IMG/VR virus record: IMGVR_UViG_3300021364_000016
Location: 1 to 64,000 of that record
Length of the DNA: 64,000 nucleotides
Reading direction: 5' to 3' (one strand)
Source: a virus
The notes beneath the pieces are model-generated. The model did no database searches. It had not been told where the DNA came from and saw only the letters and a list, made by a program, of their open reading frames with translations. Both the position numbers and the translations under genes were made by a program. Positions 38,471 to 59,051 of the stretch are shown one piece after another; the first letter of the stretch is position 1, and the number at the start of each line of letters is the position of its first letter.

Positions 38471-38610
38471 TATCTTTTTCCTTGACCTCTGTATTTCTTA
38501 AAACTTCTTCTCTTACTCTTATTCATAGTAGAGAATATAGGCTTACGTCCAATTGTTGTACCATGTTTTTTTGGTTCATGCACTGATACTGTACGAAATC
38601 TCATTGCCAT
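38470..38610 (-). CDS. Small basic protein
   Basis: 46 residues, about one third Lys/Arg: MAMRFRTVSVHEPKKHG, RKPIFSTMNKSKRRSF. Probably nucleic-acid binding or capsid associated. Overlaps both neighbours at TAATG-type junctions. Confidence 0.55.
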   Translation of the reverse strand: MAMRFRTVSVHEPKKHGTTIGRKPIFSTMNKSKRRSFKKYRGQGKR

Positions 38611-38966
38611 TAGTTATCTACCTTTGAACTTGCTCTCCACTGATAACAAGACCAGTATTTTGCTTTCCATTTAGGACCTGGATTATCACATCCGTGGCGA
38701 GCTCTGAAACTTGCTCTACGCTTTGGATCATCCCTTTTAATTTCCATATTAGGATCTCCAAATCTTACAACTACAACATTACCTTTTGGTCCTTTTACGT
38801 AAACTTTAAACTTCTTACCAGGATTCTCTGAAGTCCTAATTGGATCATTTAAGTTTACTTTTTTGCCTTTATATTCAGCTTCAGTGATCTGTAAATCTTC
38901 ATAGATATCACACTGCTCGCAAACTTGATCAATTAATTCTTCTCTATAAGTTGTAAATTTTTTCAT
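38610..38966 (-). CDS. Conserved capsid-region protein with CTS-like N-terminus
   Basis: 118 residues from ATG 38966. The start MKKFTTYREEL resembles a capsid targeting sequence. The core FKVYVKGPKGNVVVVRFGD, MEIKRDDPKRRASFRARHGCD and PGPKWKAKYWSCYQW is a widely conserved phage pattern with three Cys. It may be an internal head protein. No enzyme motif. Confidence 0.68.
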   Translation of the reverse strand: MKKFTTYREELIDQVCEQCDIYEDLQITEAEYKGKKVNLNDPIRTSENPGKKFKVYVKGPKGNVVVVRFGDPNMEIKRDDPKRRASFRARHGCDNPGPKWKAKYWSCYQWRASSKVDN

Positions 38967-38967
38967 G

Positions 38968-39195
38968 TTACCCACCAAACTCGTGACCTGCTACTCTTCG
39001 CATTTGTTTATTGAATTCAGCCTGTGAAGGCTTTTCTTTATATAATTTAATAGAGATCTCAGGTCGGTCTTTTCCTTTGATTCTCCAGTTATAACCTTTT
39101 TTCTTATGCTCTGGCTTTGACGTTTTGACTACACGTCTCTTATAGCCGGCGGCCCATGATTCTGATCCTTCATGAAATTCTTTAAATGTTTTCAT
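38968..39195 (-). CDS. Small CTS-bearing internal protein candidate
   Basis: 75 residues from ATG 39195, which overlaps the upstream stop as ATGA. MKTFKEFHEGSES is very close to the T4 capsid targeting consensus MKTYQEFIAE. The rest is basic (YKRRVVKTSKPEHKKKGYNW). If cleaved after Glu9, the basic part would be packaged with DNA. Confidence 0.62.
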   Translation of the reverse strand: MKTFKEFHEGSESWAAGYKRRVVKTSKPEHKKKGYNWRIKGKDRPEISIKLYKEKPSQAEFNKQMRRVAGHEFGG

Positions 39196-39368
39196 TTGCA
39201 TTTCTCTTCTGTTGCACTTAATTCTGTGTCTGCATCATGAATCCAAATATAACTCCAATGACCATTATCATTACACTTCCTTCCAAAAGAAAATTGTGGA
39301 TTATCCATAGGAGGTATTGCTGTACATCCAACTAAACCAAATATCATTAGTCCTAATAGTATTCTCAC
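39192..39368 (-). CDS. Small lipoprotein with GTG start
   Basis: 58 residues beginning at GTG 39368, with AAAAGGAG upstream and a GTGA overlap with the preceding stop. LLGLMIFGLVGC is a signal peptide with lipobox. The mature part has CNDNGHWSYIWIHDADTE. An internal ATG at residue 8 would truncate the signal, so GTG is preferred. Confidence 0.6.
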   Translation of the reverse strand: MRILLGLMIFGLVGCTAIPPMDNPQFSFGRKCNDNGHWSYIWIHDADTELSATEEKCK

Positions 39369-39619
39369 TTATTTTCTCCTTTTGTATCAGATCGTAGTGA
39401 TGTTTTATTAGAAGATGAGTATGGTTCATTACCCATTTTTCTTCTCATATACTTTGATACGCCTTTTGGTCCTTTTACAGGAACTTTTAAATTAGGAAGC
39501 TTTTTATCTGACTTCATTGAAAGCTCACTAACACTTTGACCCGGTGTTATTTTTTTCATTAGTCTTACCGATTCTGGTGTGCCATAATCCAATGGCCTTA
39601 TGTCTTTAAATTTTTTCAT
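39365..39619 (-). CDS. Small basic protein, possible internal protein
   Basis: 84 residues from ATG 39619 (GGAAG upstream). MKKFKDIRPLDYG is a weak capsid-targeting match without the Glu. Middle LPNLKVPVKGPKGVSKYMRRK is similar to the VKGPKG segment of 38610-38966, hinting at a shared domain. C-terminus Ser/Lys-rich. Confidence 0.55.
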   Translation of the reverse strand: MKKFKDIRPLDYGTPESVRLMKKITPGQSVSELSMKSDKKLPNLKVPVKGPKGVSKYMRRKMGNEPYSSSNKTSLRSDTKGENK

Positions 39620-40137
39620 TTTCTTCCTATAAAGGTATGATCTTTCCACCTTTGTGATCTTTCATCAGGTGCATTTAGATCTACCCAATCGTCTACAACT
39701 TTTAGTCCTACTTCATCAGCAATTGCTTTAAAAGAATCATCCATGAATCTCCAACAATCTGGATTATCATGGTATTTTCCTTGTGAAGGTGCAATTAAAA
39801 TCATACATGAACCTTCTTTTAAAACTCTTTTCATTTCTGCAACACTTCGAAAAGGATTGCGAACATGTTCTAATGTCTGACCGCTAACAATCAAATCAAT
39901 TGAATTATCCTCAAAAGGTAATTCATATTCTCCAGGCATAAGGTGAGTAACATTACCACCTCCGTTAATATCTGCTACATAATAAGTAGGATTTAAATTT
40001 TTAAATAATCCTTTGTAAGATCGATCTTGAACATTAATGTTTCGACCTCCTACATCTAAAATAGTCATACCATCTTTTAATTCATCAGCAATTTTACCAA
40101 TTGCTTTCTTCATATTAGTCACTGAACTTGGGTGCAT
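39616..40137 (-). CDS. Class I SAM-dependent methyltransferase
   Basis: 173 residues. MTILDVGGRNINVQDRSY is motif I, YYVADINGGGNV motif II, and ELPFEDNSIDLIVSGQTLEHV the Methyltransf_11 pattern. Target unknown. Lies among capsid-region genes rather than in the glycan cassette. No CTS-like N-terminus. Confidence 0.75.
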   Translation of the reverse strand: MHPSSVTNMKKAIGKIADELKDGMTILDVGGRNINVQDRSYKGLFKNLNPTYYVADINGGGNVTHLMPGEYELPFEDNSIDLIVSGQTLEHVRNPFRSVAEMKRVLKEGSCMILIAPSQGKYHDNPDCWRFMDDSFKAIADEVGLKVVDDWVDLNAPDERSQRWKDHTFIGRK

Positions 40138-41021
40138 TAATCAATTTCCTTCATTGCCTGTTTTAGTGTTTTGATTGCTTTATTTGCTTTCATTTTTGTT
40201 GATCTATCTGAGTGCTTACCAGCAACTGCAGTTAAACCTTTAATTGCATTTTTTATACCATCTTTTGCTAGTGCCATATTAGCCCTAATGATACCAGGAA
40301 CTTCTTCATTTAAATATGATTCATTGGTTTCTTCTTTACCTTGAGCCATATCGCGATATCTTTTCTTCACTTCGGCAGTAGTCATACGACTTACAGAAGT
40401 AATCATTGAAGGCTGTTTCACAATTTTTCTTAATCTAGCTTTTACTTCGCCTGGACTTGAACCACCGATAATCATATCTGGTAAACCTTCAACTCCAACT
40501 TTGAACATAAAGTCTTCATTCATATGATTGTAACTTTCACTCGTATCTTTATCAAGATGTTTACCTCTATTTCTTATATTATATTTAGTACCAGTGCCTT
40601 TTGCCAACATGCCTTTGATTCCTGAACCAGGATCATCTTTACCATGATAACCAGCTGCTTTACCTGGTGGAAGCTTAGTAATCTTACCACCGCGCTTTTT
40701 AAAATCTGCTACAGCTTTATCATGAGCAGCCTTTTGTGCGGGTGTCATTGCTTCTTTTTTAACAGGTTTCTTTTCTTTATCAAGCATTTGTCTAACTTTT
40801 AAAAGTTTATCCTTGTCTGAAGGTGTCATCATTTTCTTTTTCATCTTATCAGCGTAGTTAGGCATAAAACCTTCTTTTTTATCTCCACCTTTTGCGGAAA
40901 GATAAGCTGCAACCGCCTGATCTCTGCGTTCCTCTTTTGATTTACCTTTAAACTGCGGAGCATCAGACTTTTGAAAGTCTTTTATCCAAGCTCCAATTCC
41001 ATCTGATACTTTAAGTGGCAT
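40137..41021 (-). CDS. Lys/Gly-rich conserved protein of the capsid cluster
   Basis: 294 residues. N-terminal VSDGIGAWIKDFQKSDAPQF and RRDQAVAAYLSAKGG are a conserved marine-phage start. Several short Lys-rich blocks (KKKMMTPSDKDKLL, KKEAMTPAQKAAHD) resemble repeated core-protein segments. Probably prohead core or internal scaffold; two ExLNEE-like sites could be protease targets. Confidence 0.58.
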   Translation of the reverse strand: MPLKVSDGIGAWIKDFQKSDAPQFKGKSKEERRDQAVAAYLSAKGGDKKEGFMPNYADKMKKKMMTPSDKDKLLKVRQMLDKEKKPVKKEAMTPAQKAAHDKAVADFKKRGGKITKLPPGKAAGYHGKDDPGSGIKGMLAKGTGTKYNIRNRGKHLDKDTSESYNHMNEDFMFKVGVEGLPDMIIGGSSPGEVKARLRKIVKQPSMITSVSRMTTAEVKKRYRDMAQGKEETNESYLNEEVPGIIRANMALAKDGIKNAIKGLTAVAGKHSDRSTKMKANKAIKTLKQAMKEID

Positions 41022-41023
41022 AT

Positions 41024-41269
41024 TTATCTCCTAGACTCTTTATTAACTTTTTCTTTTTTAACTTTACCGTCAGCGCCTACAGTAGTAGGTTGACCATATG
41101 GATCTTTTTTCTTTTTACCAGCATTTCCTGCCTGTTGAACTTTATGGCCTAGATACGCGCCGGCTGCTGCACCTACTGGACCGCCTGCTAATCCGCCAGC
41201 GACACCACCGGCTACTGCGCCAGCAATACCTTCTTCTAATTCTTCTTTTAATTCCCAATAAGTTTTCAT
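41024..41269 (-). CDS. CTS-like N-terminus plus glycine-zipper protein
   Basis: 81 residues. MKTYWELKEELEE closely resembles T4 MKTYQEFIAE. It is followed by a glycine zipper (AGAVAGGVAGGLAGGPVGAAAG) that could insert into membrane, then a Lys-rich tail. A packaged peptide that enters the host membrane on ejection is conceivable. Confidence 0.62.
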   Translation of the reverse strand: MKTYWELKEELEEGIAGAVAGGVAGGLAGGPVGAAAGAYLGHKVQQAGNAGKKKKDPYGQPTTVGADGKVKKEKVNKESRR

Positions 41270-41270
41270 T

Positions 41271-41519
41271 TTATCCTCTTACCTTTGCTGCCAAGTCTTT
41301 ATCAGCTTTACCCCAAGTACCTGACGATTTTGTTACGAACGAATTGACTCTTGCTAATCCCCATTGTTGTGGTGTAGTACCTGGCCTATGGCCAGTTCTC
41401 CAAGCGGCAACTCCTCTGTTATAAACCTTTCGAAGAATACCAGCCGGCATTCCTGATTTTTCGGCTTTCTTTTTAATAGCAGCATCTGCTTTTTCGTTAA
41501 TGTATTCTTTGAATCTCAT
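41271..41519 (-). CDS. DUF5824-like protein with CTS
   Basis: 82 residues. MRFKEYINEKAD matches the capsid targeting pattern (xxxKEFIxE). The rest, EKSGMPAGILRKVYNRGVAA and RTGHRPGTTPQQW, fits a small phage family (DUF5824-like) that is usually fused or standalone. Basic and probably DNA-associated. Confidence 0.65.
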   Translation of the reverse strand: MRFKEYINEKADAAIKKKAEKSGMPAGILRKVYNRGVAAWRTGHRPGTTPQQWGLARVNSFVTKSSGTWGKADKDLAAKVRG

Positions 41520-42526
41520 TAGTCATCTCCAAACATTTGTTTAAATCTTTTTGTGTGTTTACTCGGTTTTGTTTTTGCTCGAGCATCTCCGGGTGCTTTT
41601 TTATAAGCGGCAGGATTATCATCGTCGTACTTACTATATTTCTTAAAATGTGCCTTTCTTTTATCTTTAGTTCCTTTTGAAAGACCTTTAAAATAAGCAG
41701 ACCGATCCTCTAATTGCTCAACAGCATCTAACCATTTTCTGTACGTACCATTTTTATTTTCAACAATTACATAATTACTTCCTAACTGTGTAACTGTAAC
41801 AATTTCGTTATTTTCTTTAATAACTACTTTATCTCCTACAGCATACAAGTTACCTTTAATATAATTTTCACGTACTTCAGAAACAGATTCTAATTGTACA
41901 TGATTCTTAAATTCTTTTTGTTCTTTTAATCCCATGCTTTTACGAACTTCATTATATAATTTTTTAGCATCAGCATTAGATAATGTTTTAGGTAGACCTT
42001 GAGAAAAAGATGTAAAGTCATTCTTCGAAGCAGCTGCTCTCATTTTAGATGCAGACATTCCTTCTGCTCCATCAGCATCTGGATCTCTTTCGCCTGCAGA
42101 GATAATAGTGATCTTAGAAAAATTATATAATCCGTGTCTAGCTTTTTCACCATTATACTTATTGAGAAGAACTTCAAATTCGTTTACACGATCTGATCCA
42201 ACGACCATCGCGACATTTTTAAAACCTTCTTTATATAATTTTACAAGGGCATCAAAGACAGTTTTAACTTTTTTATCTGCCATAATTTGTCTTGCATGTT
42301 TTGGAAACATCTTACGAGCGTGTTTTACTTTACTTGCAAAATTAAGTGGATTCTTTTTCTTATCAGTTGATTGTGATAAGTAAACTCTATATGGATTTTG
42401 GCGAGAAGAAGATGCTAATTTATTTAGTAACTTTTCATGACCAATAGTAGGAGGGTTCATTCTACCAAATGTAAAATAAACGGTCTTCTCCTCTTCAACT
42501 AAGTAATTTTTAAACGAATTAATCAT
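41519..42526 (-). CDS. Nucleotidyltransferase-like enzyme with CTS
   Basis: 335 residues. MINSFKNYLVEEEK looks like a capsid targeting sequence. Then VYFTFGRMNPPTIGHEKLL carries the TIGH motif (27-30) of the HIGH nucleotidyltransferase superfamily, VAMVVGSDRVNEF, and EGMSASKMRAAA as the ISxTxIR equivalent. The C-terminal 120 residues hold a small beta domain (YAVGDKVVIKENNEIVTV) and a Lys-rich tail. May transfer a nucleotide to an unknown acceptor after injection. Confidence 0.72.
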   Translation of the reverse strand: MINSFKNYLVEEEKTVYFTFGRMNPPTIGHEKLLNKLASSSRQNPYRVYLSQSTDKKKNPLNFASKVKHARKMFPKHARQIMADKKVKTVFDALVKLYKEGFKNVAMVVGSDRVNEFEVLLNKYNGEKARHGLYNFSKITIISAGERDPDADGAEGMSASKMRAAASKNDFTSFSQGLPKTLSNADAKKLYNEVRKSMGLKEQKEFKNHVQLESVSEVRENYIKGNLYAVGDKVVIKENNEIVTVTQLGSNYVIVENKNGTYRKWLDAVEQLEDRSAYFKGLSKGTKDKRKAHFKKYSKYDDDNPAAYKKAPGDARAKTKPSKHTKRFKQMFGDD

Positions 42527-42897
42527 TGTTTCTTTCTTGCGAATTCTTGTCTACGTTTTGCAGGGAGCATTCTTTTTTGCATGTAACCAATTCTAGTTTG
42601 CCAGGTATCGGTTGAAAGTCTTCTTTCAATCTCTTTTTTCTTTGCAACTGAGAGTTCTGATTTATTCTTACCTTGAGCTAATTTTTTGGCCATCATTGCG
42701 CGAGATCCTCTACGTGCTCTTTTAGTAAGAACCTGTTTATTTGCGAGTCTGCGTCTTGCCCGAGCTCTTGCAAGCTTGAGTCTAGACTTTCGTCTTTTCA
42801 TACTTCTGGCTAATTTACGTCTTCCTTGGATAGAAAGAACTTCGTCGAGATCTGACGACTCGAGTATAAATGTTGAGAAGCGAATAATATCCGCCAT
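42523..42897 (-). CDS. Very basic internal protein candidate
   Basis: 124 residues, more than a third Lys or Arg. IIRFSTFILESSDLDEVL resembles an offset capsid targeting sequence. The body (RRKLARSMKRRKSRLKLARA, RARRGSRAMMAKKLAQ) is ideal for binding packaged DNA. Overlaps its neighbours by one to four bases. Confidence 0.65.
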   Translation of the reverse strand: MADIIRFSTFILESSDLDEVLSIQGRRKLARSMKRRKSRLKLARARARRRLANKQVLTKRARRGSRAMMAKKLAQGKNKSELSVAKKKEIERRLSTDTWQTRIGYMQKRMLPAKRRQEFARKKQ

Positions 42898-44123
42898 TAA
42901 TTTCTCCCTGGTTTATCCCATCCTTTTAATATATTTGGTGAAAAGTTGGCATAGGAAAATTCTAACCTATCAACAATTTTCACCGCATCACCACCAAGTC
43001 TATCGATAGCTACATATCCTTCTTGGCCTGTAACTTGATAGCCTCTTTTAGTTTTCAAAAAAGTCTTTGCATTATTAAGTTTGTTTAGTATATTTATAAG
43101 TTTTAATTTCGCAAGAACAATTGTCTTTTGTAATTCAAACATCCTTTCTAAAGAATTTTTATTTTCTTTTGAAAAGAATTTTAGTAATTCATCTAACTTT
43201 TTTTGCTGGACCGCTTTGCCTTTTTCGGTGCTCCTTTTTTGGATTTCTTTTTTGTACTTACCTTCGATATAACGAATGAGCCCAACCACATGGCGACGCG
43301 TATCTTTAATAACTTCACCTTTACGTACAAAGGTATTATTATATGTCTCAATGGTTTGAGCAAGAGCTTTATTAGATTCCAAAGTGCGTAAGGTACTACC
43401 ACTAATTTGGTTAAATATTTTCCCAGCTTTGCTAAGTAACTCATTAACTTCCTCCGTGTCTGTTTTAGTCATAGTAAATGCTGTCATGTCTCTTAACATT
43501 GCATCTTGAGACCAAACATTACTTGATTTTTTAAGTTTTGAAACATTAACTCCATAAGAAGCTTTCATTGTTTCAAAAGAATTTCCTTTATAAGTTGTAT
43601 GCCAAACTATACCGATCTTGGTACTCTTAATTTCTTTGGCCGCTTGACTATTTGCAGGTACTGCATATACAATTGTATTAGGGTGAAAGGTAACATAAGA
43701 TTGTCCTTTAATCTTAGAGGTTTTAACATCTCCTGGACCATATAAAAAATCTCCTTGTATTACACCTTTTATCCCAAGATCGGGTAGATACTGTAAAGCG
43801 AGTTTAAGCTTTGTAGCAAGATCACCACTAGTATCAGCGTCGATATCTGCATTACTCTTGTATACCTTGGGCTCCTTATTGAAGATTCCTTTTTTAGCCA
43901 CGAAGAATCTGCCATCACGTGGATCAGTCCCAGCAAACACAGCAGGAGCACCATCCCATTTAACACTAACATTACCATCTTTCACTCCTCCTAACATATC
44001 TCTTAAGGATCTGAGAGCCATTATTGCCTGTCGAGTTCCGTCAACTCCACCGTAGATTACTTTATCCTCGATGTGAGTCATGTGCGTATTCTTTTGTTCG
44101 GTTATAAACTCTTTAAAATTCAT
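42897..44123 (-). CDS. DUF6267-like KxDG nucleotidyltransferase/ligase-like protein with CTS
   Basis: 408 residues. MNFKEFITEQKN is a near-perfect capsid targeting sequence. NVSVKWDGAPAVF holds a KxDG motif (Lys55-Gly58) as in ATP-dependent ligases and capping enzymes. FFVAKKGIFN and GVIQGDFLYG match later ligase motifs, and YVTFHPNTIVYAV is beta-rich. The C-terminal half is helical and Lys-rich. It may seal or modify nucleic acid inside the capsid or after ejection. Known only as an uncharacterised family to me. Confidence 0.7.
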   Translation of the reverse strand: MNFKEFITEQKNTHMTHIEDKVIYGGVDGTRQAIMALRSLRDMLGGVKDGNVSVKWDGAPAVFAGTDPRDGRFFVAKKGIFNKEPKVYKSNADIDADTSGDLATKLKLALQYLPDLGIKGVIQGDFLYGPGDVKTSKIKGQSYVTFHPNTIVYAVPANSQAAKEIKSTKIGIVWHTTYKGNSFETMKASYGVNVSKLKKSSNVWSQDAMLRDMTAFTMTKTDTEEVNELLSKAGKIFNQISGSTLRTLESNKALAQTIETYNNTFVRKGEVIKDTRRHVVGLIRYIEGKYKKEIQKRSTEKGKAVQQKKLDELLKFFSKENKNSLERMFELQKTIVLAKLKLINILNKLNNAKTFLKTKRGYQVTGQEGYVAIDRLGGDAVKIVDRLEFSYANFSPNILKGWDKPGRN

Positions 44124-44941
44124 TATATTTTCACTCTAGGTTTAATTGTTCCTTGTGTTACTACATCAATTGAGATATCTGATAATGAAGGAGTCTTAAT
44201 TGCAGCGACTTCTCCTGATCTCGCAGCTGGTGTAGTATTCACCATAAAGATAATTGGATTTTTTCCTAAATATTTACTAGCAGCTTTTGCATATGGAGTT
44301 TCAACTTCTTTCTTCCATCTTGCTGCTAATTTACGATCAGCCATAATTGCTTTAATTTGAGCTCCATTAACACCAGTCTTTTCTTTACCTTTAGCAGCAA
44401 TTTTTGGATCGGCATCTCTTATTTCTAAAGCAGCTTTTACCATATTTGCAAGTGGTACAGTACCACCTAACTTAAATCCAATAATTTCTTTTCCGCCAAA
44501 TTCGCCAGGTAAATTACCAGCTTTTACTTCATAATTTTTTCCATCAACTACAATGTCAACTCCAGCACTTGAACCTCCACCTAAATGCGCTTTATCTAAT
44601 AAAAAGAATAAGGTTGCTTCTGCCGGGCCAACGCCTTTTAGATTGTAGGTATGTAGATTTTTAAAATTCTTAGCATTAATACTTTTCAGTTTCTTTATCA
44701 AGTTGTTTAATTTGTTAGGTGTAGGTTGACCTGAAATAGTAGTATCTAAATCAAATGACGGAAACATATGTGTTCTAAATAAATGTTGTATTTCTTTTTT
44801 ATACTTCAAAGAAGTAAAGTCATTAGATGATAGATTGAAAGATGTTACCTTTTGAGCTCGTTTTAAAAAATCAGCATCTAAATCTGATACGTTTGCTGCA
44901 GCCATTTCTTCAAGCTTAAAAAATGTTTTAAATTTCTGCAT
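44123..44941 (-). CDS. PD-(D/E)XK nuclease-like protein with CTS
   Basis: 272 residues. MQKFKTFFKLEEMA resembles a capsid targeting sequence. GPAEATLFFLLD, GVDIVVDGKNYEVKAG with Asp129, Glu138 and Lys140 is a typical PD-(D/E)XK active site. The rest is mixed and Lys-rich. First gene of the late operon that runs through the capsid cluster, with GGAG and a late promoter upstream. Confidence 0.7.
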   Translation of the reverse strand: MQKFKTFFKLEEMAAANVSDLDADFLKRAQKVTSFNLSSNDFTSLKYKKEIQHLFRTHMFPSFDLDTTISGQPTPNKLNNLIKKLKSINAKNFKNLHTYNLKGVGPAEATLFFLLDKAHLGGGSSAGVDIVVDGKNYEVKAGNLPGEFGGKEIIGFKLGGTVPLANMVKAALEIRDADPKIAAKGKEKTGVNGAQIKAIMADRKLAARWKKEVETPYAKAASKYLGKNPIIFMVNTTPAARSGEVAAIKTPSLSDISIDVVTQGTIKPRVKI

Positions 44942-44975: not shown

Positions 44976-44983
44976 TATTTATA
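44976..44983 (-). promoter_or_regulatory. T4-type late promoter of the capsid cluster
   Basis: Perfect TATAAATA on the minus strand, 35 bases before the ATG at 44941, with CTGGAG in the leader. Confidence 0.82.
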
Positions 44984-44996
44984 AGTTTTTGTAAAC

Positions 44997-45027
44997 AAAA
45001 AAAGCGCCGAAAAGACGCTTTTTTTAT
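44997..45027 (-). terminator. Bidirectional intrinsic terminator
   Basis: AAAAAAAGCG and CGCTTTTTTT form a 10-base stem around CCGAAAAGA. It follows the odd tRNA and precedes the capsid operon promoter. Confidence 0.8.
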
Positions 45028-45038
45028 AAATACATATT

Positions 45039-45127
45039 TGGCTCTGGAGGGTGGACTCGAACCACCACGTCTCGCTCAAGACAATAGGGAAACAACCTAT
45101 CGCGTCTACCTTTTCCGCCACTCCAGA
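45039..45127 (-). tRNA. Atypical type II tRNA with GUU anticodon
   Basis: 89 bases with encoded CCA. Acceptor TCTGGAG/CTCCAGA, discriminator G, D arm GGCGGAAAAGGTAGACGC like tRNA-Leu, anticodon stem ATAGG/CCTAT around loop TTGTTTC, long variable arm (GTCTTGAGCGAGAC), T arm GGTGGTTCGAGTCCACC. The anticodon GUU would read Asn codons, but the long arm belongs to Leu/Ser/Tyr tRNAs, and U at position 37 is unusual. It follows the synthetase-like gene by four bases. Confidence 0.8.
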
Positions 45128-45131
45128 TTAA

Positions 45132-45947
45132 TTATTTTTTGTCTAAAGCAGCAATCATTCTTGTCATGCCGATTCCACCGCCGACCCGTGGAAAGAAATC
45201 AAATTTTAAGAATTCTTCGAGCTCTGCTTCTACTCTTTCTTTACCGAATAAATCAAATAATAATTTAGAATATGCTCCATCAGTAATCGTGTGAAACGTA
45301 TCTCTCATTTGTTCTACGTCTGTAGATCTTTCTGCTGAACCAATTGTTTCCATACCACCGAGTATTACATCAATTTTCTTCGAAGTATCTACGGTTGGAT
45401 TTCTACTCATATTCCAGAATGGACTTGTAAATTCAGGAAAATCTGTAATCATACAACTTCCAAATTTATCATACATAGCATTTTCATGTTCAGCTGTTAA
45501 TTCACCTTCAACATTAAAATGTACTTGCCATCCACCATATGTCATTTCTGTAATTACACCAAATCCTAAATATTCGCATAATTCATATTCCATTGCTTTG
45601 AGATCTTCGATAGTTCCAGGAAACTCAAACTCAAACATTGGAAATATAATATCATGTCTTCCAGGTATTGCATTCGGTTCTTGTCTATACGAGGTTGAGA
45701 CACAAAAAAAGCCCTTTGATTCGGGCGCTGAAAGTAATTCGTGTTCTAACCACATCTGACCTGTTTGAGGTAATGGCCAAACTTGACCTGCATAATTGTA
45801 TGTTGCCACATTAAAAGGATCTTCACAAGCAGCTAATATACTCAATCTATTTTGAGTATGAACTTCTAGAAAGCCTTTGTCTAAAAAAAATGACCTTAAA
45901 AGGCCAACTGTATCTGTAAATTTTTTGGGTGGTATTAGTTGCGTCAT
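45132..45947 (-). CDS. Class II aminoacyl-tRNA synthetase catalytic core (AsnRS/AspRS-like)
   Basis: 271 residues, only the catalytic domain. Motif 1 region FFLDKGFLEVHT; motif 2 SYRQEPNAIPGRHDIIFPMFEFE with Arg88, Glu90 and His98 as in AsnRS/AspRS (FRxE...RHxxEF); motif 3 GGGIGMTRMIAAL at 256-268. The N-terminal OB-fold anticodon-binding domain is missing. It may charge the adjacent tRNA, or be an asparagine synthetase-like or protein-modifying paralogue. Late promoter at 45978-45985. Confidence 0.78.
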   Translation of the reverse strand: MTQLIPPKKFTDTVGLLRSFFLDKGFLEVHTQNRLSILAACEDPFNVATYNYAGQVWPLPQTGQMWLEHELLSAPESKGFFCVSTSYRQEPNAIPGRHDIIFPMFEFEFPGTIEDLKAMEYELCEYLGFGVITEMTYGGWQVHFNVEGELTAEHENAMYDKFGSCMITDFPEFTSPFWNMSRNPTVDTSKKIDVILGGMETIGSAERSTDVEQMRDTFHTITDGAYSKLLFDLFGKERVEAELEEFLKFDFFPRVGGGIGMTRMIAALDKK

Positions 45948-46024: not shown

Positions 46025-47050
46025 TTACTTTAAATCAGCAGCAGTTAATTTTGGAAGATTTTCCATTCTGGAAATCATTTCTGCTTTTTCAGCATCTGGT
46101 AATGGAATCATACCGGCGTCAGATAACGCACCTTCATCGTCCCAATGCTTTGTCCATTCTTTCATGTAACCTTCAATGCCAGGTACTACACCAATATGAT
46201 TATGTTTAACATAAAAATAAAGTGCTCTTGAAACAGAATATGAACCATCTGCAATAGATTCGAATTTTGGTTCTGTACCATCAATCACAGCTCCACTTAA
46301 AATATCTGAATTTTGATCCAGATATGAAAAGCCAAAGATGCCATATGATTCAGGATCATCTTGCAGCTTTTGAACAATCAAATTATCTTGTTCACCTGCC
46401 TCAATATAGGCTCCATCTGTACGCATTGCACGACAAACTTTTGACTTTGCTCCAGCGGCTTTCAGTGCTGCCTTTGCTGCAGGATCCTTTTTACAGTATC
46501 CTTTTTCATTTACCATTTCAACGAAGGACGCTCTAGTACCAGAAGTGGTTGGAGGACCCATGACTCTAATTTTAAGATTTGGAAGACTTGGATCAATCTG
46601 ATTCCAATGTGTATATGGGTTATCAATCCAATTTCCGTTTTCATCTGGAACTTTAGCAGTTAATGCTTTACCGAGATTTAATTTTGAAATATTAAGTGGT
46701 GTACCTTTTTTGGAATAGGCAACCACAATGCCATCGTATCCAACTTTAATTTCTGTAATATCAACTTGATTTTTATTGCAGTATTCTAGTTCTTTTACTT
46801 TCATTCTTGATGATGCATTTCCGATGTCAATAAATTGTACACCGGTACCATCACATACACCTTTTTTACCAACCGAAGAACCACCAGATTCTACGATAGG
46901 AGTTTTATTACTTGGTAGTCTACCAAACTGTTCTGCCACAATTGTAGCAAATGGTAGTACTGTTGACGATCCTGCGATCGACATATAATCTCTTGCCTGT
47001 GCAGTTGAGGCCACGACAACAAGAGCAGCGGTTAAAATTAATTTTTTCAT
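46025..47050 (-). CDS. pstS: Periplasmic phosphate-binding protein
   Basis: 341 residues from ATG 47050, chosen because AGGACGTAAG precedes it and a signal peptide follows (MKKLILTAALVVVASTAQA). SIAGSSTVLPFA, VESGGSSVGKKGVC, GNASSRMK and TTSGTRASFVE are the phosphate-binding loops of PstS. It probably boosts host phosphate capture during infection, as proposed for other marine phages. It sits under its own late promoter. Confidence 0.95.
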   Translation of the reverse strand: MKKLILTAALVVVASTAQARDYMSIAGSSTVLPFATIVAEQFGRLPSNKTPIVESGGSSVGKKGVCDGTGVQFIDIGNASSRMKVKELEYCNKNQVDITEIKVGYDGIVVAYSKKGTPLNISKLNLGKALTAKVPDENGNWIDNPYTHWNQIDPSLPNLKIRVMGPPTTSGTRASFVEMVNEKGYCKKDPAAKAALKAAGAKSKVCRAMRTDGAYIEAGEQDNLIVQKLQDDPESYGIFGFSYLDQNSDILSGAVIDGTEPKFESIADGSYSVSRALYFYVKHNHIGVVPGIEGYMKEWTKHWDDEGALSDAGMIPLPDAEKAEMISRMENLPKLTAADLK

Positions 47051-47107
47051 CTTACGTCCTTTTCTAAAATGGTTAACGAGAACTCGTCTCAACATAAGTT
47101 CTCGTTT

Positions 47108-57217: not shown

Positions 57218-57365
57218 CCTTTTTTCTCTCTTGCCTTAATTTCCATAACATCCAATCATAATATCTTTCTGGTTCAGGATCATTAATCTCCAGTGGTTTA
57301 GGTTCATCTGGTAGTTCAACGTACTTTCCTGTACCTGTGATATCTTGAGTATATTTATTTGTCAT
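57201..57365 (-). CDS. Small acidic protein
   Basis: 54 residues from ATG 57365, overlapping the BMP gene stop as ATGA. YVELPDEPKPLEINDPEPER, then a basic C-terminus. Function unknown. Confidence 0.58.
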   Translation of the reverse strand: MTNKYTQDITGTGKYVELPDEPKPLEINDPEPERYYDWMLWKLRQERKKDEANR

Positions 57366-58372
57366 GGTTTAATTGCGTCAATTCCAGGTAAATATTCACT
57401 CATACCGAGTAATTCACCATCTGTAAATTGACCACCAAAAGGATCAAATTCACCTTTAGTAATTTTCATTTGAAGAGTTTCGGCAAGTTCTGCTAATTCA
57501 GGAGGCATGTTAGAATATTCTGCCATGTCTACCATACCAGTATCCATACCACCCCAAGTATCTTTTGACTTCCATGTTCCATCAATTACAGCTCTTACTC
57601 TTTCTACATAGTAAGGTCCCCAAACATCAAGAATAGAAGTCAATTGAGTATTTGGAGCAAATTGAATCATATCGGATGCTTGTCCAAAACCCATTACTCC
57701 TGCCTTATATGCTGTCTGTAAAGGCGCAGGTGAATCTGTATGCTGTGTAATGATATCAGCGCCTTGACTGATTAAAACTTTTGTAGCATCGGATTCTTTA
57801 ATTGGATCATACCATGTATTTACCCAAATCACATCGATATCAAAATCTTTATTTACGCTTGTAGCTCCAAGATAAAATGCATTAATACCTCTAATGACTT
57901 CTGGAATTGGAAAGGAAGCAATGTAACCTGCTTTACCGTTTTTACTCATATGACCAGCAATAACACCTTGGATATATCTACCTTGATAAAATTTAGAAGA
58001 ATATACAGATAGATTGTCTGCTGTCTTATATCCAGTGGCGTGTTCGAATTTTACATTAGGAAATTCTTTTGCAACTTTAACCATTGGTTCCATATAACCG
58101 AATGATGTAGCAAAAACAATATCCATTTCTTGAGCCATGGATCTGATAACTTGTTCAGCTTCTGGCCCATATTTTACACTTTCAATATAGGAAGTTTCGA
58201 CTTGATCTCCGAACTCTTGTTCGATAGCGAGTCTACCTTTATCATGCATGTAAGTCCAACCGTGGTCGCCAATTGGGCCGACGTATACAAATCCAACTTT
58301 TACAGGATCAGCATGCGCCGCTGAAAATAAGAATAATGACAAAAATGCCATTGCTTTAAAAAATAGTTTCAT
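57362..58372 (-). CDS. BMP/PnrA-family periplasmic substrate-binding protein
   Basis: 336 residues from ATG 58372 with AAAGGA upstream. Signal peptide FKAMAFLSLFLFSAAHA. VKVGFVYVGPIGDHGWTYMH, DIVFATSFGYMEPMVKVA, YQGRYIQGVIAGHM and FPIPEVIRGINAF are typical of the basic membrane protein/PnrA group, which binds nucleosides for ABC import. No lipobox Cys. Likely scavenges nucleosides for the host transporter during infection, but the ligand is inferred. Confidence 0.87.
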   Translation of the reverse strand: MKLFFKAMAFLSLFLFSAAHADPVKVGFVYVGPIGDHGWTYMHDKGRLAIEQEFGDQVETSYIESVKYGPEAEQVIRSMAQEMDIVFATSFGYMEPMVKVAKEFPNVKFEHATGYKTADNLSVYSSKFYQGRYIQGVIAGHMSKNGKAGYIASFPIPEVIRGINAFYLGATSVNKDFDIDVIWVNTWYDPIKESDATKVLISQGADIITQHTDSPAPLQTAYKAGVMGFGQASDMIQFAPNTQLTSILDVWGPYYVERVRAVIDGTWKSKDTWGGMDTGMVDMAEYSNMPPELAELAETLQMKITKGEFDPFGGQFTDGELLGMSEYLPGIDAIKP

Positions 58373-58388
58373 TATTGAGTCCTTTCTT

Positions 58389-59051
58389 TTAATGAACAAA
58401 TTCTTTGATAATTGGAAAAACAGGTTCTAACACTTTAGCACACTCTTTCGCAACATCCATATGCTCTTTTTGAGTGCCATGTCCTGACCTTAATTCAATG
58501 TAGTGAATCCATGAACGAAGTGTTCCATTCATATATATACGAGAAGTTGTGAGACCTTCTGGTAATACAGCTCTACGAACTTCTTTTGCAATATTGTTTT
58601 CTGCTGCCCATTCGTAGGCTTTTCTTGCAGCAACCATTACTTCGGATTGTTTTTTTAGCCATTCCATTTTAAGATCTATATCTTGTGTAGGAATACTATT
58701 CTGTCTATTTTTAGTATCTTGTAAACGTGGTTCAGACGATAAATGCATATCTAGTTCTGATGTAGGATCTGCATATCGTTGAGAAAATTCTTGAAACGAA
58801 AATGATCGATGTCTTAAAATTTGTCTAGCAATATCTCGGGTTGTTTCAATTTCTAAGCAAGCAGATACCATTTCGAACGGTGACCAGTGCCCTTCTTTTC
58901 TGAGATAGGCAAGTAACCTTTCTGACGTTTGAGTGTTGTTTTGGTTCGAGGGATTCGAGACACGGGCGCAATAAGCGACGACATCTTGTAACGATTCACC
59001 AGCATTTAAATCCTCCACAGGTTGTGAATAACTAATCAATTTTACTTTCAT
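58389..59051 (-). CDS. thyX: Flavin-dependent thymidylate synthase
   Basis: 220 residues with the ThyX motif RHRSFSFQEFSQRY at 80-93. Also FEMVSACLEIETTRDIARQ and LRSWIHYIELRSGHGTQKE. It makes dTMP from dUMP using FAD and methylenetetrahydrofolate. Together with nrdJ it supports phage DNA synthesis. Start overlaps the next upstream gene by one base. Confidence 0.95.
   Translation of the reverse strand: MKVKLISYSQPVEDLNAGESLQDVVAYCARVSNPSNQNNTQTSERLLAYLRKEGHWSPFEMVSACLEIETTRDIARQILRHRSFSFQEFSQRYADPTSELDMHLSSEPRLQDTKNRQNSIPTQDIDLKMEWLKKQSEVMVAARKAYEWAAENNIAKEVRRAVLPEGLTTSRIYMNGTLRSWIHYIELRSGHGTQKEHMDVAKECAKVLEPVFPIIKEFVH

What the first reader, a model, noticed from the sequence alone, without database searches (positions are those of the whole stretch)
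38610..44941. Cluster of enzymes with T4-like capsid targeting sequences
Seen: neighbouring proteins start MKTFKEFHEG, MKTYWELKEE, MRFKEYINEK, MINSFKNYLVEE, IIRFSTFILES, MNFKEFITEQ and MQKFKTFFKLEE. Known: T4 internal proteins carry an N-terminal capsid targeting sequence (MKTYQEFIAE type), cleaved after Glu by the gp21 protease. Several proteins have enzyme motifs: PD-(D/E)XK (44123), KxDG ligase-like (42897) and TIGH nucleotidyltransferase (41519). Others are very basic or glycine-zipper peptides. Inference: a packaged, co-injected enzyme set, possibly for host takeover or counter-defence.
Basis: partly seen in the sequence, partly recalled or inferred. Interest (0 to 1): 0.85.

Follow-up and report, generated by a model that had tools for sequence, protein, structure and literature searches.

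The report
Phage cargo enzymes with head-packaging tags
A marine T4-like phage carries a block of mostly unrelated genes, several of them putative enzymes, whose proteins begin with the same short tag that phage T4 uses to load proteins into its head; this can explain why enzymes keep turning up inside related virus particles, and suggests they are injected into the host with the DNA.

Summary
Four proteins (42897-44123, 41519-42526, 41271-41519, 42523-42897) start with a near-perfect F-x-x-[FY]-[ILV]-x-E tag. Four more (44123, 41024, 38968, 38610) carry weaker versions, three of them backed by relatives. The conserved positions are those that mutagenesis showed to matter in T4's capsid targeting sequence.

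Support: the tag is kept across about 80 related loci while neighbouring residues and codons vary. In the nearest isolate genome the six best-tagged ORFs of 657 all lie in this cluster or just beside it. An L-x-E site of the same kind ends the major-capsid propeptide. Close relatives carrying the cluster encode the gp21-type protease. The slot upstream of DUF6267 holds unrelated proteins, many tagged, often behind a T4-type late promoter. A tag profile trained on these loci picks out all four non-structural enzymes reported by mass spectrometry in S-CREM2 virions.

So this is a T4 internal-protein-like packaging system whose cargo includes putative enzymes: a PD-(D/E)XK-like nuclease, a KxDG protein (DUF6267) and an NMNAT-like nucleotidyltransferase. 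Packaging is well supported. Cleavage, ejection and counter-defence function are inferred. I found no earlier report for this phage family.

The parts
44976..44983 (-). T4-type late promoter TATAAATA, 35 nt upstream of the first gene of the block, after a tRNA gene and a terminator-like hairpin (about 44995-45021)
   Evidence: TATAAATA lies within 130 nt upstream of 45 of 131 slot genes in related loci against 1.6% of random stretches
44123..44941 (-). Slot protein, PD-(D/E)XK-like nuclease, 272 aa; tag MQKFKTFFKLEE (44906-44941), weak in this copy
   Evidence: invariant D129, E138, K140 in 16 relatives, tag clean in most relatives; no Pfam match; fold search not significant
42897..44123 (-). 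DUF6267 protein, 408 aa, invariant KWDG; tag MNFKEFITE (44097-44123)
   Evidence: Pfam DUF6267 4.5e-103; tag score 21.0; 78 of 78 scored relatives tagged
42523..42897 (-). Very basic 124-aa protein; tag MADIIRFSTFILE (42859-42897)
   Evidence: tag score 14.3, family not used in training; only 18 of 72 relatives score 6 or more
41519..42526 (-). NMNAT/cytidylyltransferase-like nucleotidyltransferase, 335 aa; tag MINSFKNYLVE (42494-42526)
   Evidence: phrog_3041 7.6e-82, phrog_395 2.8e-71; Pfam CTP_transf_like 9.3e-4, just below its cut-off; 74 of 74 relatives tagged
41271..41519 (-). DUF5824 protein, 82 aa; tag MRFKEYINE (41493-41519)
   Evidence: Pfam DUF5824 1.6e-18; tag score 17.4, family not used in training; 41 of 60 relatives tagged
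41024..41269 (-). Glycine-zipper peptide, 81 aa; possible tag MKTYWELKEELEE (41231-41269), unproven
   Evidence: score 1.6, not significant; only two relatives, MKTFFELREELDEG
38968..39195 (-). Basic 75-aa protein; possible tag MKTFKEFHE (39169-39195), same first seven residues as T4 IPI
   Evidence: some relatives MISLKNFIRE, MIKFRDFVEG
38610..38966 (-). 118-aa protein; F4 and Y7 near the start and a second [IL]xE-A site, LQITE-AEYKGKK, at residues 25-36
   Evidence: 11 of 22 relatives score 8 or more; C48C1 MKKFKQYIDE...ELTE-AEYQGKK; second site in some relatives
40137..41021 (-). Untagged 294-aa protein within the block
   Evidence: 0 of 33 relatives tagged
39616..40137 (-). Untagged class I methyltransferase within the block
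   Evidence: Pfam Methyltransf_11 9e-11

Best explanation
This is the cargo locus of a T4-type head-packaging system. Shown from sequence: several unrelated proteins, in a unit that begins with a T4-like late promoter, share a short N-terminal peptide with aromatic anchors three residues apart followed by an [ILV]-x-E site. Shown in relatives: gp21-type protease in the same contig, an L-x-E site of the same kind at the end of the MCP propeptide, and published virion mass spectrometry of tagged homologues. Inferred from T4 biology: the aromatic half docks the protein on the prohead core, gp21 cuts after Glu and frees the mature protein, DNA is packaged around it, and the protein is ejected with the genome. 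Most likely role (inferred): a set of nucleic-acid and nucleotide enzymes (variable PD-(D/E)XK-like nuclease, KxDG protein DUF6267, NMNAT-like nucleotidyltransferase, basic binding proteins) acting in the first minutes of infection to process DNA or RNA and blunt host defence, with the nuclease slot swapped between phages in the way T4 internal proteins are.
For: Anchor columns F, F/Y/H, I/L/V, E with free columns between match T4 CTS residues 4, 7, 8, 10; several synonymous codons at most anchors. Top six of 657 ORFs in C48C1 and top four in contig G004 are in or beside the cluster; control families in the same loci never tagged. gp21 in close relatives; MCP propeptides end FLTE and similar, T4 gp23 FLTE-A. 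Unrelated slot proteins behind one tag and late promoters in 45/131 slots. S-CREM2: 4 of 4 non-structural, non-lysis enzymes in virions tagged against 3 of 215 other ORFs, p=4e-7. S-CRM01 virion kinase MISFDQFLSE. S-SZBM1 virion nucleotidyltransferase MRFRQFIIE tagged, its DUF6267 untagged and not listed.
Against: No virion data exist for the window's own lineage, and the window record is a fragment without gp21 or MCP. Over all S-CREM2 virion proteins the enrichment is modest (5/52 against 2/167, p=0.009; rank test p=0.08; first regex p 0.04-0.06), and the threshold was chosen from a few. The residue after Glu is mostly E, Q, D or M here, not A as in T4. Four of the eight tags are weak alone, and 42523 is untagged in most relatives. 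S-CREM2's authors considered contamination possible. Function of the cargo is untested.
Confidence: 0.8

Rival explanations
1. The shared N-terminal peptide is a docking motif for an intracellular complex (for example the replisome, as the cluster in relatives follows the gp41 helicase), not a packaging tag.
For: Genome position next to replication genes in relatives; putative enzymes on nucleic acids and nucleotides.
Against: Tagged homologues are reported in virions; the Glu in register with a prohead-protease site has no reason in this reading; late promoters; the tag matches the residues that mutagenesis defined in T4.
Confidence: 0.1
2. The tag is real and packages the proteins, but as structural or core components (internal scaffold, DNA condensation, head completion) that stay in the head; they are not injected effectors.
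For: Several cargo proteins are small and very basic; PD-(D/E)XK-type nucleases also serve in head completion in T4-like phages (general knowledge).
Against: The slot proteins are unrelated between close phages, unusual for structural parts; SAM lyase and kinases behind the same tag in S-CREM2 and S-CRM01 act on host substrates; T4 IPs are injected.
Confidence: 0.12
3. Chance or start-site bias: AT-rich phage genes often begin MKxF, and the similarity is not functional.
For: Weak members (44123, 38610, 38968, 41024) are not significant alone.
Against: Strong members are far outside shuffles and cluster in single loci in three genomes; the pattern is kept over about 80 loci with synonymous codon change; control families in the same loci score zero.
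Confidence: 0.03

Closest known systems
Phage T4 internal proteins IPI, IPII, IPIII with the capsid targeting sequence (CTS)
   Same: Short N-terminal tag with the same four anchor positions, L/I-x-E site, hypervariable bodies behind a constant tag, prohead protease; 38968 shares MKTFKEF with IPI.
   Different: Cargo here includes several putative enzymes, clustered in one locus with an exchangeable nuclease slot; T4 IPs are small non-enzymatic proteins at other loci; bodies are not homologous by the searches made.
T4 Alt ADP-ribosyltransferase
   Same: A head-packaged, gp21-processed enzyme injected with DNA.
   Different: No ADP-ribosyltransferase domain was found among the proteins of this block; Alt uses a different N-terminal sequence (general knowledge).
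Virion-associated enzymes of cyanophages (NMNAT-like/cytidylyltransferase, kinases, SAM hydrolase in S-CREM2, S-SZBM1, S-SM1, S-SCSM1, S-CRM01)
   Same: Homologous nucleotidyltransferase; tagged in the same way where I could read the sequence.
   Different: Previously listed as unexplained virion proteins or possible contaminants, with no targeting signal proposed in the passages read.
Phage P1 Dar proteins and other polyvalent proteins
   Same: Head-packaged counter-defence cargo (PMC5512222).
   Different: Large multidomain proteins without a short shared N-terminal tag; not homologous as far as searched.
SPN3US and phiKZ inner-body/ejection proteins
   Same: Propeptides cut after Glu by a gp21-related protease.
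   Different: Propeptides mostly over 100 residues and S/A-x-E type sites.

Membership tests
T4-type capsid targeting sequence | Aromatic residues at positions 4 and 7 of a short N-terminal peptide (targeting) | tested here: met
   Invariant F and F/Y/H three residues apart in DUF6267 and F and F/Y in nucleotidyltransferase N-termini; absolute position shifts by -1 to +3 in some proteins
T4-type capsid targeting sequence | L/I-x-E cleavage site directly after the anchors | tested here: met
   Columns 5 and 7 are I/L/V and E; displaced by two residues in window 44123
T4-type capsid targeting sequence | Cleavage after Glu by gp21 in the prohead | not testable with these tools
   No peptide-level virion data available; gp21 present in relatives carrying the cluster
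T4-type capsid targeting sequence | Same tag on unrelated proteins | tested here: met
   DUF6267, nucleotidyltransferase, DUF5824, basic protein and several unrelated slot families
T4 internal proteins | Presence in the virion | tested here: inconclusive
   Shown for tagged homologues in other phages by published mass spectrometry, not for this phage
T4 internal proteins | Late expression | tested here: met
   TATAAATA 35 nt upstream of the block and in 45 of 131 related slots; sequence evidence only
T4 internal proteins | Injection into the host and anti-defence action | not testable with these tools
   Inferred from T4 IPI and IPIII
RNA/DNA ligase-type covalent nucleotidyltransferases (DUF6267 protein) | Motif I KxDG and motif IV EGxV with a following conserved Lys | tested here: met
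   Invariant K55, D57, G58; E368, G369, V371; K382 in 38 relatives; reading by eye
RNA/DNA ligase-type covalent nucleotidyltransferases (DUF6267 protein) | Detectable profile or fold similarity | tested here: not met
   hhalign with T4 RnlB negative; fold search shows some ligases only at E about 1-2 on a model of pLDDT 73; not filed as a ligase
PD-(D/E)XK nucleases (44123 protein) | Conserved D...(D/E)xK in beta strands | tested here: met
   D129, E138, K140 invariant in 16 relatives, on predicted strands 128-132 and 135-143, mean pLDDT 85
PD-(D/E)XK nucleases (44123 protein) | Fold match to a solved member | tested here: inconclusive
   Only insignificant matches, including restriction enzymes 3ndh and 1pvi at E 2.4-8.1
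NMNAT/cytidylyltransferase-like nucleotidyltransferases (41519 protein) | Family profile match with (T/H)xGH signature | tested here: met
   phrog_395 2.8e-71, phrog_3041 7.6e-82; Pfam just below cut-off; substrate unknown

The most novel reading that the evidence does not exclude
Phages of the Kyanoviridae share a dedicated, swappable cargo locus that loads an enzyme module (variable PD-(D/E)XK-like nuclease, KxDG protein, NMNAT-like enzyme) into the head by a T4-type tag, and the prohead protease carries the targeting half of the same motif, without the cleavable Glu, at its own C-terminus. The module acts as an injected first-strike kit, for example nuclease and ligase chemistry supported by local NAD+ regeneration.
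Probability: 0.35. Interest if true: 0.87.

Novelty: new variant of a known kind. Interest (0 to 1): 0.74.

Why it matters
T4-like phages are abundant in the sea, and enzymes have repeatedly been found in their particles without an explanation of how they get there. A short readable tag would let anyone list likely injected proteins of such phages from sequence alone, turn many genes of unknown function into candidates for immediate-early effectors or anti-defence proteins, and make the question testable with existing spectra. It also gives natural examples of sizeable enzymes apparently loaded into T4-type heads.

Tried and rejected
Megablast of 36-48 kb against phages: no match. First regular expression for the tag in S-CREM2: only weak enrichment, p 0.04-0.06, so a profile trained on independent sequences was used. 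Rank test over all non-structural virion proteins: p 0.08, as many are tail or unknown proteins. DUF6267 as RNA ligase: hhalign with T4 RnlB and with Va1_166 negative, PDB sequence and fold searches not significant; kept as a motif-level lead only. PD-(D/E)XK: PDB and fold searches not significant. PADLOC: nothing for the window proteins beyond one weak hit at 0.0075. NCBIfam: nothing informative besides the methyltransferase. gp21 and MCP in the window record: not found, but the record is a fragment. 'Cas9' annotation of S-CREM2 gp12: no Pfam support, only phrog_3561 of unknown function, so not used as a Cas9. RNA_ligase family elsewhere in related records: none. Relatives of Va1_166 in viral contigs: none. 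An automatic search for conserved D..[ES]xK columns across the large mixed slot clusters failed; the nuclease reading of the other slot proteins rests on inspection. No paper of the library mentions DUF6267 or DUF5824, and none of the 15 papers with the phrase 'capsid targeting sequence' is about cyanophages or pelagiphages by title. One call (106, ligase family) and one viral scan (125) led nowhere.
Full report
WHAT IS THERE. The window lies in a 68,493-base viral record. Its nearest isolate is phage C48C1 of the Kyanoviridae. The region 38610-44941 is a nearly contiguous minus-strand block. Its first gene (44123-44941) follows a tRNA gene, a terminator-like hairpin and a T4-type late promoter TATAAATA at 44976-44983. 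Identified families are DUF6267 (42897), DUF5824 (41271), phage cytidyltransferase/NMNAT-like (41519) and a methyltransferase (39616). The same order, slot gene - DUF6267 - nucleotidyltransferase - further small genes, occurs in C48C1, HTVC008M, Melnitz, DLP_6, Syn9 and S-SZBM1, downstream of the gp41 helicase in several of them. N-termini there are of the same type: MQGFKTFLSE, MLSFKQFVSE, MITFKKYLEE, MKKFKQYIDE, MKKFSAFLSE.

IS THE MOTIF MORE THAN CHANCE. I took 7-mers at a fixed distance from conserved enzyme residues, not by looking for the motif, from DUF6267 and nucleotidyltransferase orthologues in related IMG/VR loci. Columns 1, 4, 5, 7 are F, F/Y (some H, T), I/L/V, E with little variation; columns 2, 3, 6 vary more. 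Several synonymous codons occur at most anchors. A profile from these two families gives 17.4 and 14.3 for 41271 and 42523, which were not used in training, and at most 5.6 for any other window ORF outside the training families. In C48C1 the six best of 657 ORFs all lie in 57.3-68.1 kb, probability 4e-7. In the 99-kb contig G004 the four best are again cluster genes. Neighbouring control families in the same loci never reach score 6. The weaker members were judged by relatives: the 44123 family has a clean tag in most members and the window copy a two-residue insertion; 38610 relatives are often tagged and some keep a second [IL]xE-A site further on, an arrangement also seen in T4 IPI (MKTFKEFTSTTTPVSTITE-A); 38968 begins with the same MKTFKEF; 41024 remains unproven.

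WHY A CAPSID TARGETING SEQUENCE. In T4 a 10-residue tag (MKTYQEFIAE) targets IPIII to the prohead core. Mutagenesis put targeting at residues 4 and 7 and processing at 8 and 10, and gp21 cuts after L/I-x-E (PMC9026906). The conserved columns here have the same kinds of residue and the same spacing. C48C1 and relatives encode gp21 (Peptidase_S77), including two contigs whose slot protein is 82% identical to that of the window. MCP propeptides of this lineage carry FLTE, GLTE or MLQE at the expected maturation position; T4 gp23 has FLTE-A. The gp21 of this lineage ends REFKNFLSLIKSKL, or nearly so, in almost all of about 80 loci, which repeats the F-x-x-F-L half without the Glu. I propose, as inference, that tail and tags bind the same core site.

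SLOT DIVERSITY. The gene directly upstream of DUF6267 differs between phages. Clustering 158 loci gives several unrelated families; many members start with the tag. On inspection most long members show a D...[ES]xK stretch, suggesting exchangeable PD-(D/E)XK-type nucleases; for the window family D129, E138 and K140 are invariant. TATAAATA precedes 45 of 131 slot genes, mostly at 30-47 nt, against 1.6% of random stretches.

VIRION DATA FROM RELATIVES. In S-CREM2, 52 virion proteins were listed by mass spectrometry (PMC10665884). All four non-structural, non-lysis enzymes are tagged: SAM hydrolase MKDFDSFLEE (a Pfam S-AdoMet lyase), kinase MKRFDAFLTE, 'Cas9-like' gp12 with FASFMAE within its first 27 residues, nucleotidyltransferase MKNFSSFLTE; only 3 of 215 other ORFs score as high (p=4e-7). 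Over all virion proteins the enrichment is modest (5/52 against 2/167, p=0.009). The S-CRM01 kinase, reported in virions, begins MISFDQFLSE and lies close behind DUF6267. S-SZBM1 virions contain the tagged nucleotidyltransferase (PMC9146016). DUF6267 of S-SZBM1 and S-CREM2 lacks the tag and is not in the lists, which is consistent but weak, since absence from a list proves little. S-SM1 virions contain the cytidylyltransferase T4-GC190 (PMC3037559). No targeting signal was proposed in the passages of these papers that I read, and S-CREM2's authors considered contamination possible.

MECHANISM. Shown: shared tag, protease and cleavage-site consistency, late-type promoter, virion presence of tagged homologues. 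Inferred: docking on the core, cleavage, ejection, early action. For function I favour an injected nucleic-acid and nucleotide processing set with counter-defence as the selective reason, because T4 IPI and IPIII act against host barriers, the nuclease slot is hypervariable, and S-CREM2 carries a SAM lyase behind the same tag. The trio nuclease, KxDG protein, NMNAT-like enzyme also recurs in Vibrio phage Va1, where a homologue of 44123 follows a single protein containing a KTDG stretch and an NMNAT-like domain, without tags. This suggests that the three act together whether packaged or not. A possible link, untested: a ligase that uses NAD+ would release NMN, which an NMNAT turns back into NAD+.

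MEMBERSHIP AND NOVELTY. Sequence-level features of the T4 CTS and internal-protein system are met; cleavage and injection could not be tested. It works like the T4 internal-protein system; its cargo (putative enzymes, clustered, with a swappable nuclease slot) makes it a variant. In the paper library no publication was found that reports this tag in cyanophages or their relatives, though most subscription papers are not held.

LIMITS. Enzyme assignments of 42897 and 44123 rest on motifs; fold and profile searches were not significant. Orthologue sets are related to one another, and in some scans one search pattern covered the tag itself, which favours tagged copies.

Noticed in passing
L200:14633-15292 and loci L296-L375: The prohead protease gp21 of this lineage ends ..REFKNFLSLIKSKL, repeating the targeting half (F-x-x-F-L) of the cargo tag without the cleavable Glu; other lineages end with FAKFL or FDKFM.
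   Followed up: partly
L378:1496-3759 (Vibrio phage Va1): A homologue of the window's nuclease-like protein follows a 484-aa protein with a KTDG stretch and an NMNAT-like domain: the same trio of functions as in the window, without tags.
   Followed up: partly
window 45039-45127 (-) and 45132-45947 (-): A tRNA predicted as Asn (anticodon GTT) is 89 nt long with a long variable arm, and its only phage match is a tRNA-Leu; it lies next to a 271-aa class II (D, K, N) aminoacyl-tRNA synthetase-like protein.
   Followed up: no
S-CREM2 gp160 (L009:28342-29235) and Syn9 gp190 (L003:24458-24982): Near their starts these proteins share a G-[FY]-T-G...GP-x-AG-[YF]-DP stretch with the N-terminal region of the S-CREM2 major capsid protein; gp160 was listed in virions.
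   Followed up: no
L002:17294-17911 (C48C1 CDS81): A further tagged gene (MKFKTYLNEGF) of unknown function, about 4 kb before the main cluster.
   Followed up: no
L007:7704-10313 (S-CREM2 gp12), L282:10243-13161, L283:10216-13137, L284:10138-11889: Large virion or virion-candidate proteins share an N-terminal SRWSxW...GFSxF[LI]xEA peptide ending in the tag; the 'Cas9' annotation of gp12 has no Pfam support.
   Followed up: partly
window 46025-47095 (-) and 57362-58399 (-): Two phage-encoded substrate-binding proteins, PBP-like/PstS-type (8e-43) and PnrA/Bmp-like (2e-51).
   Followed up: no
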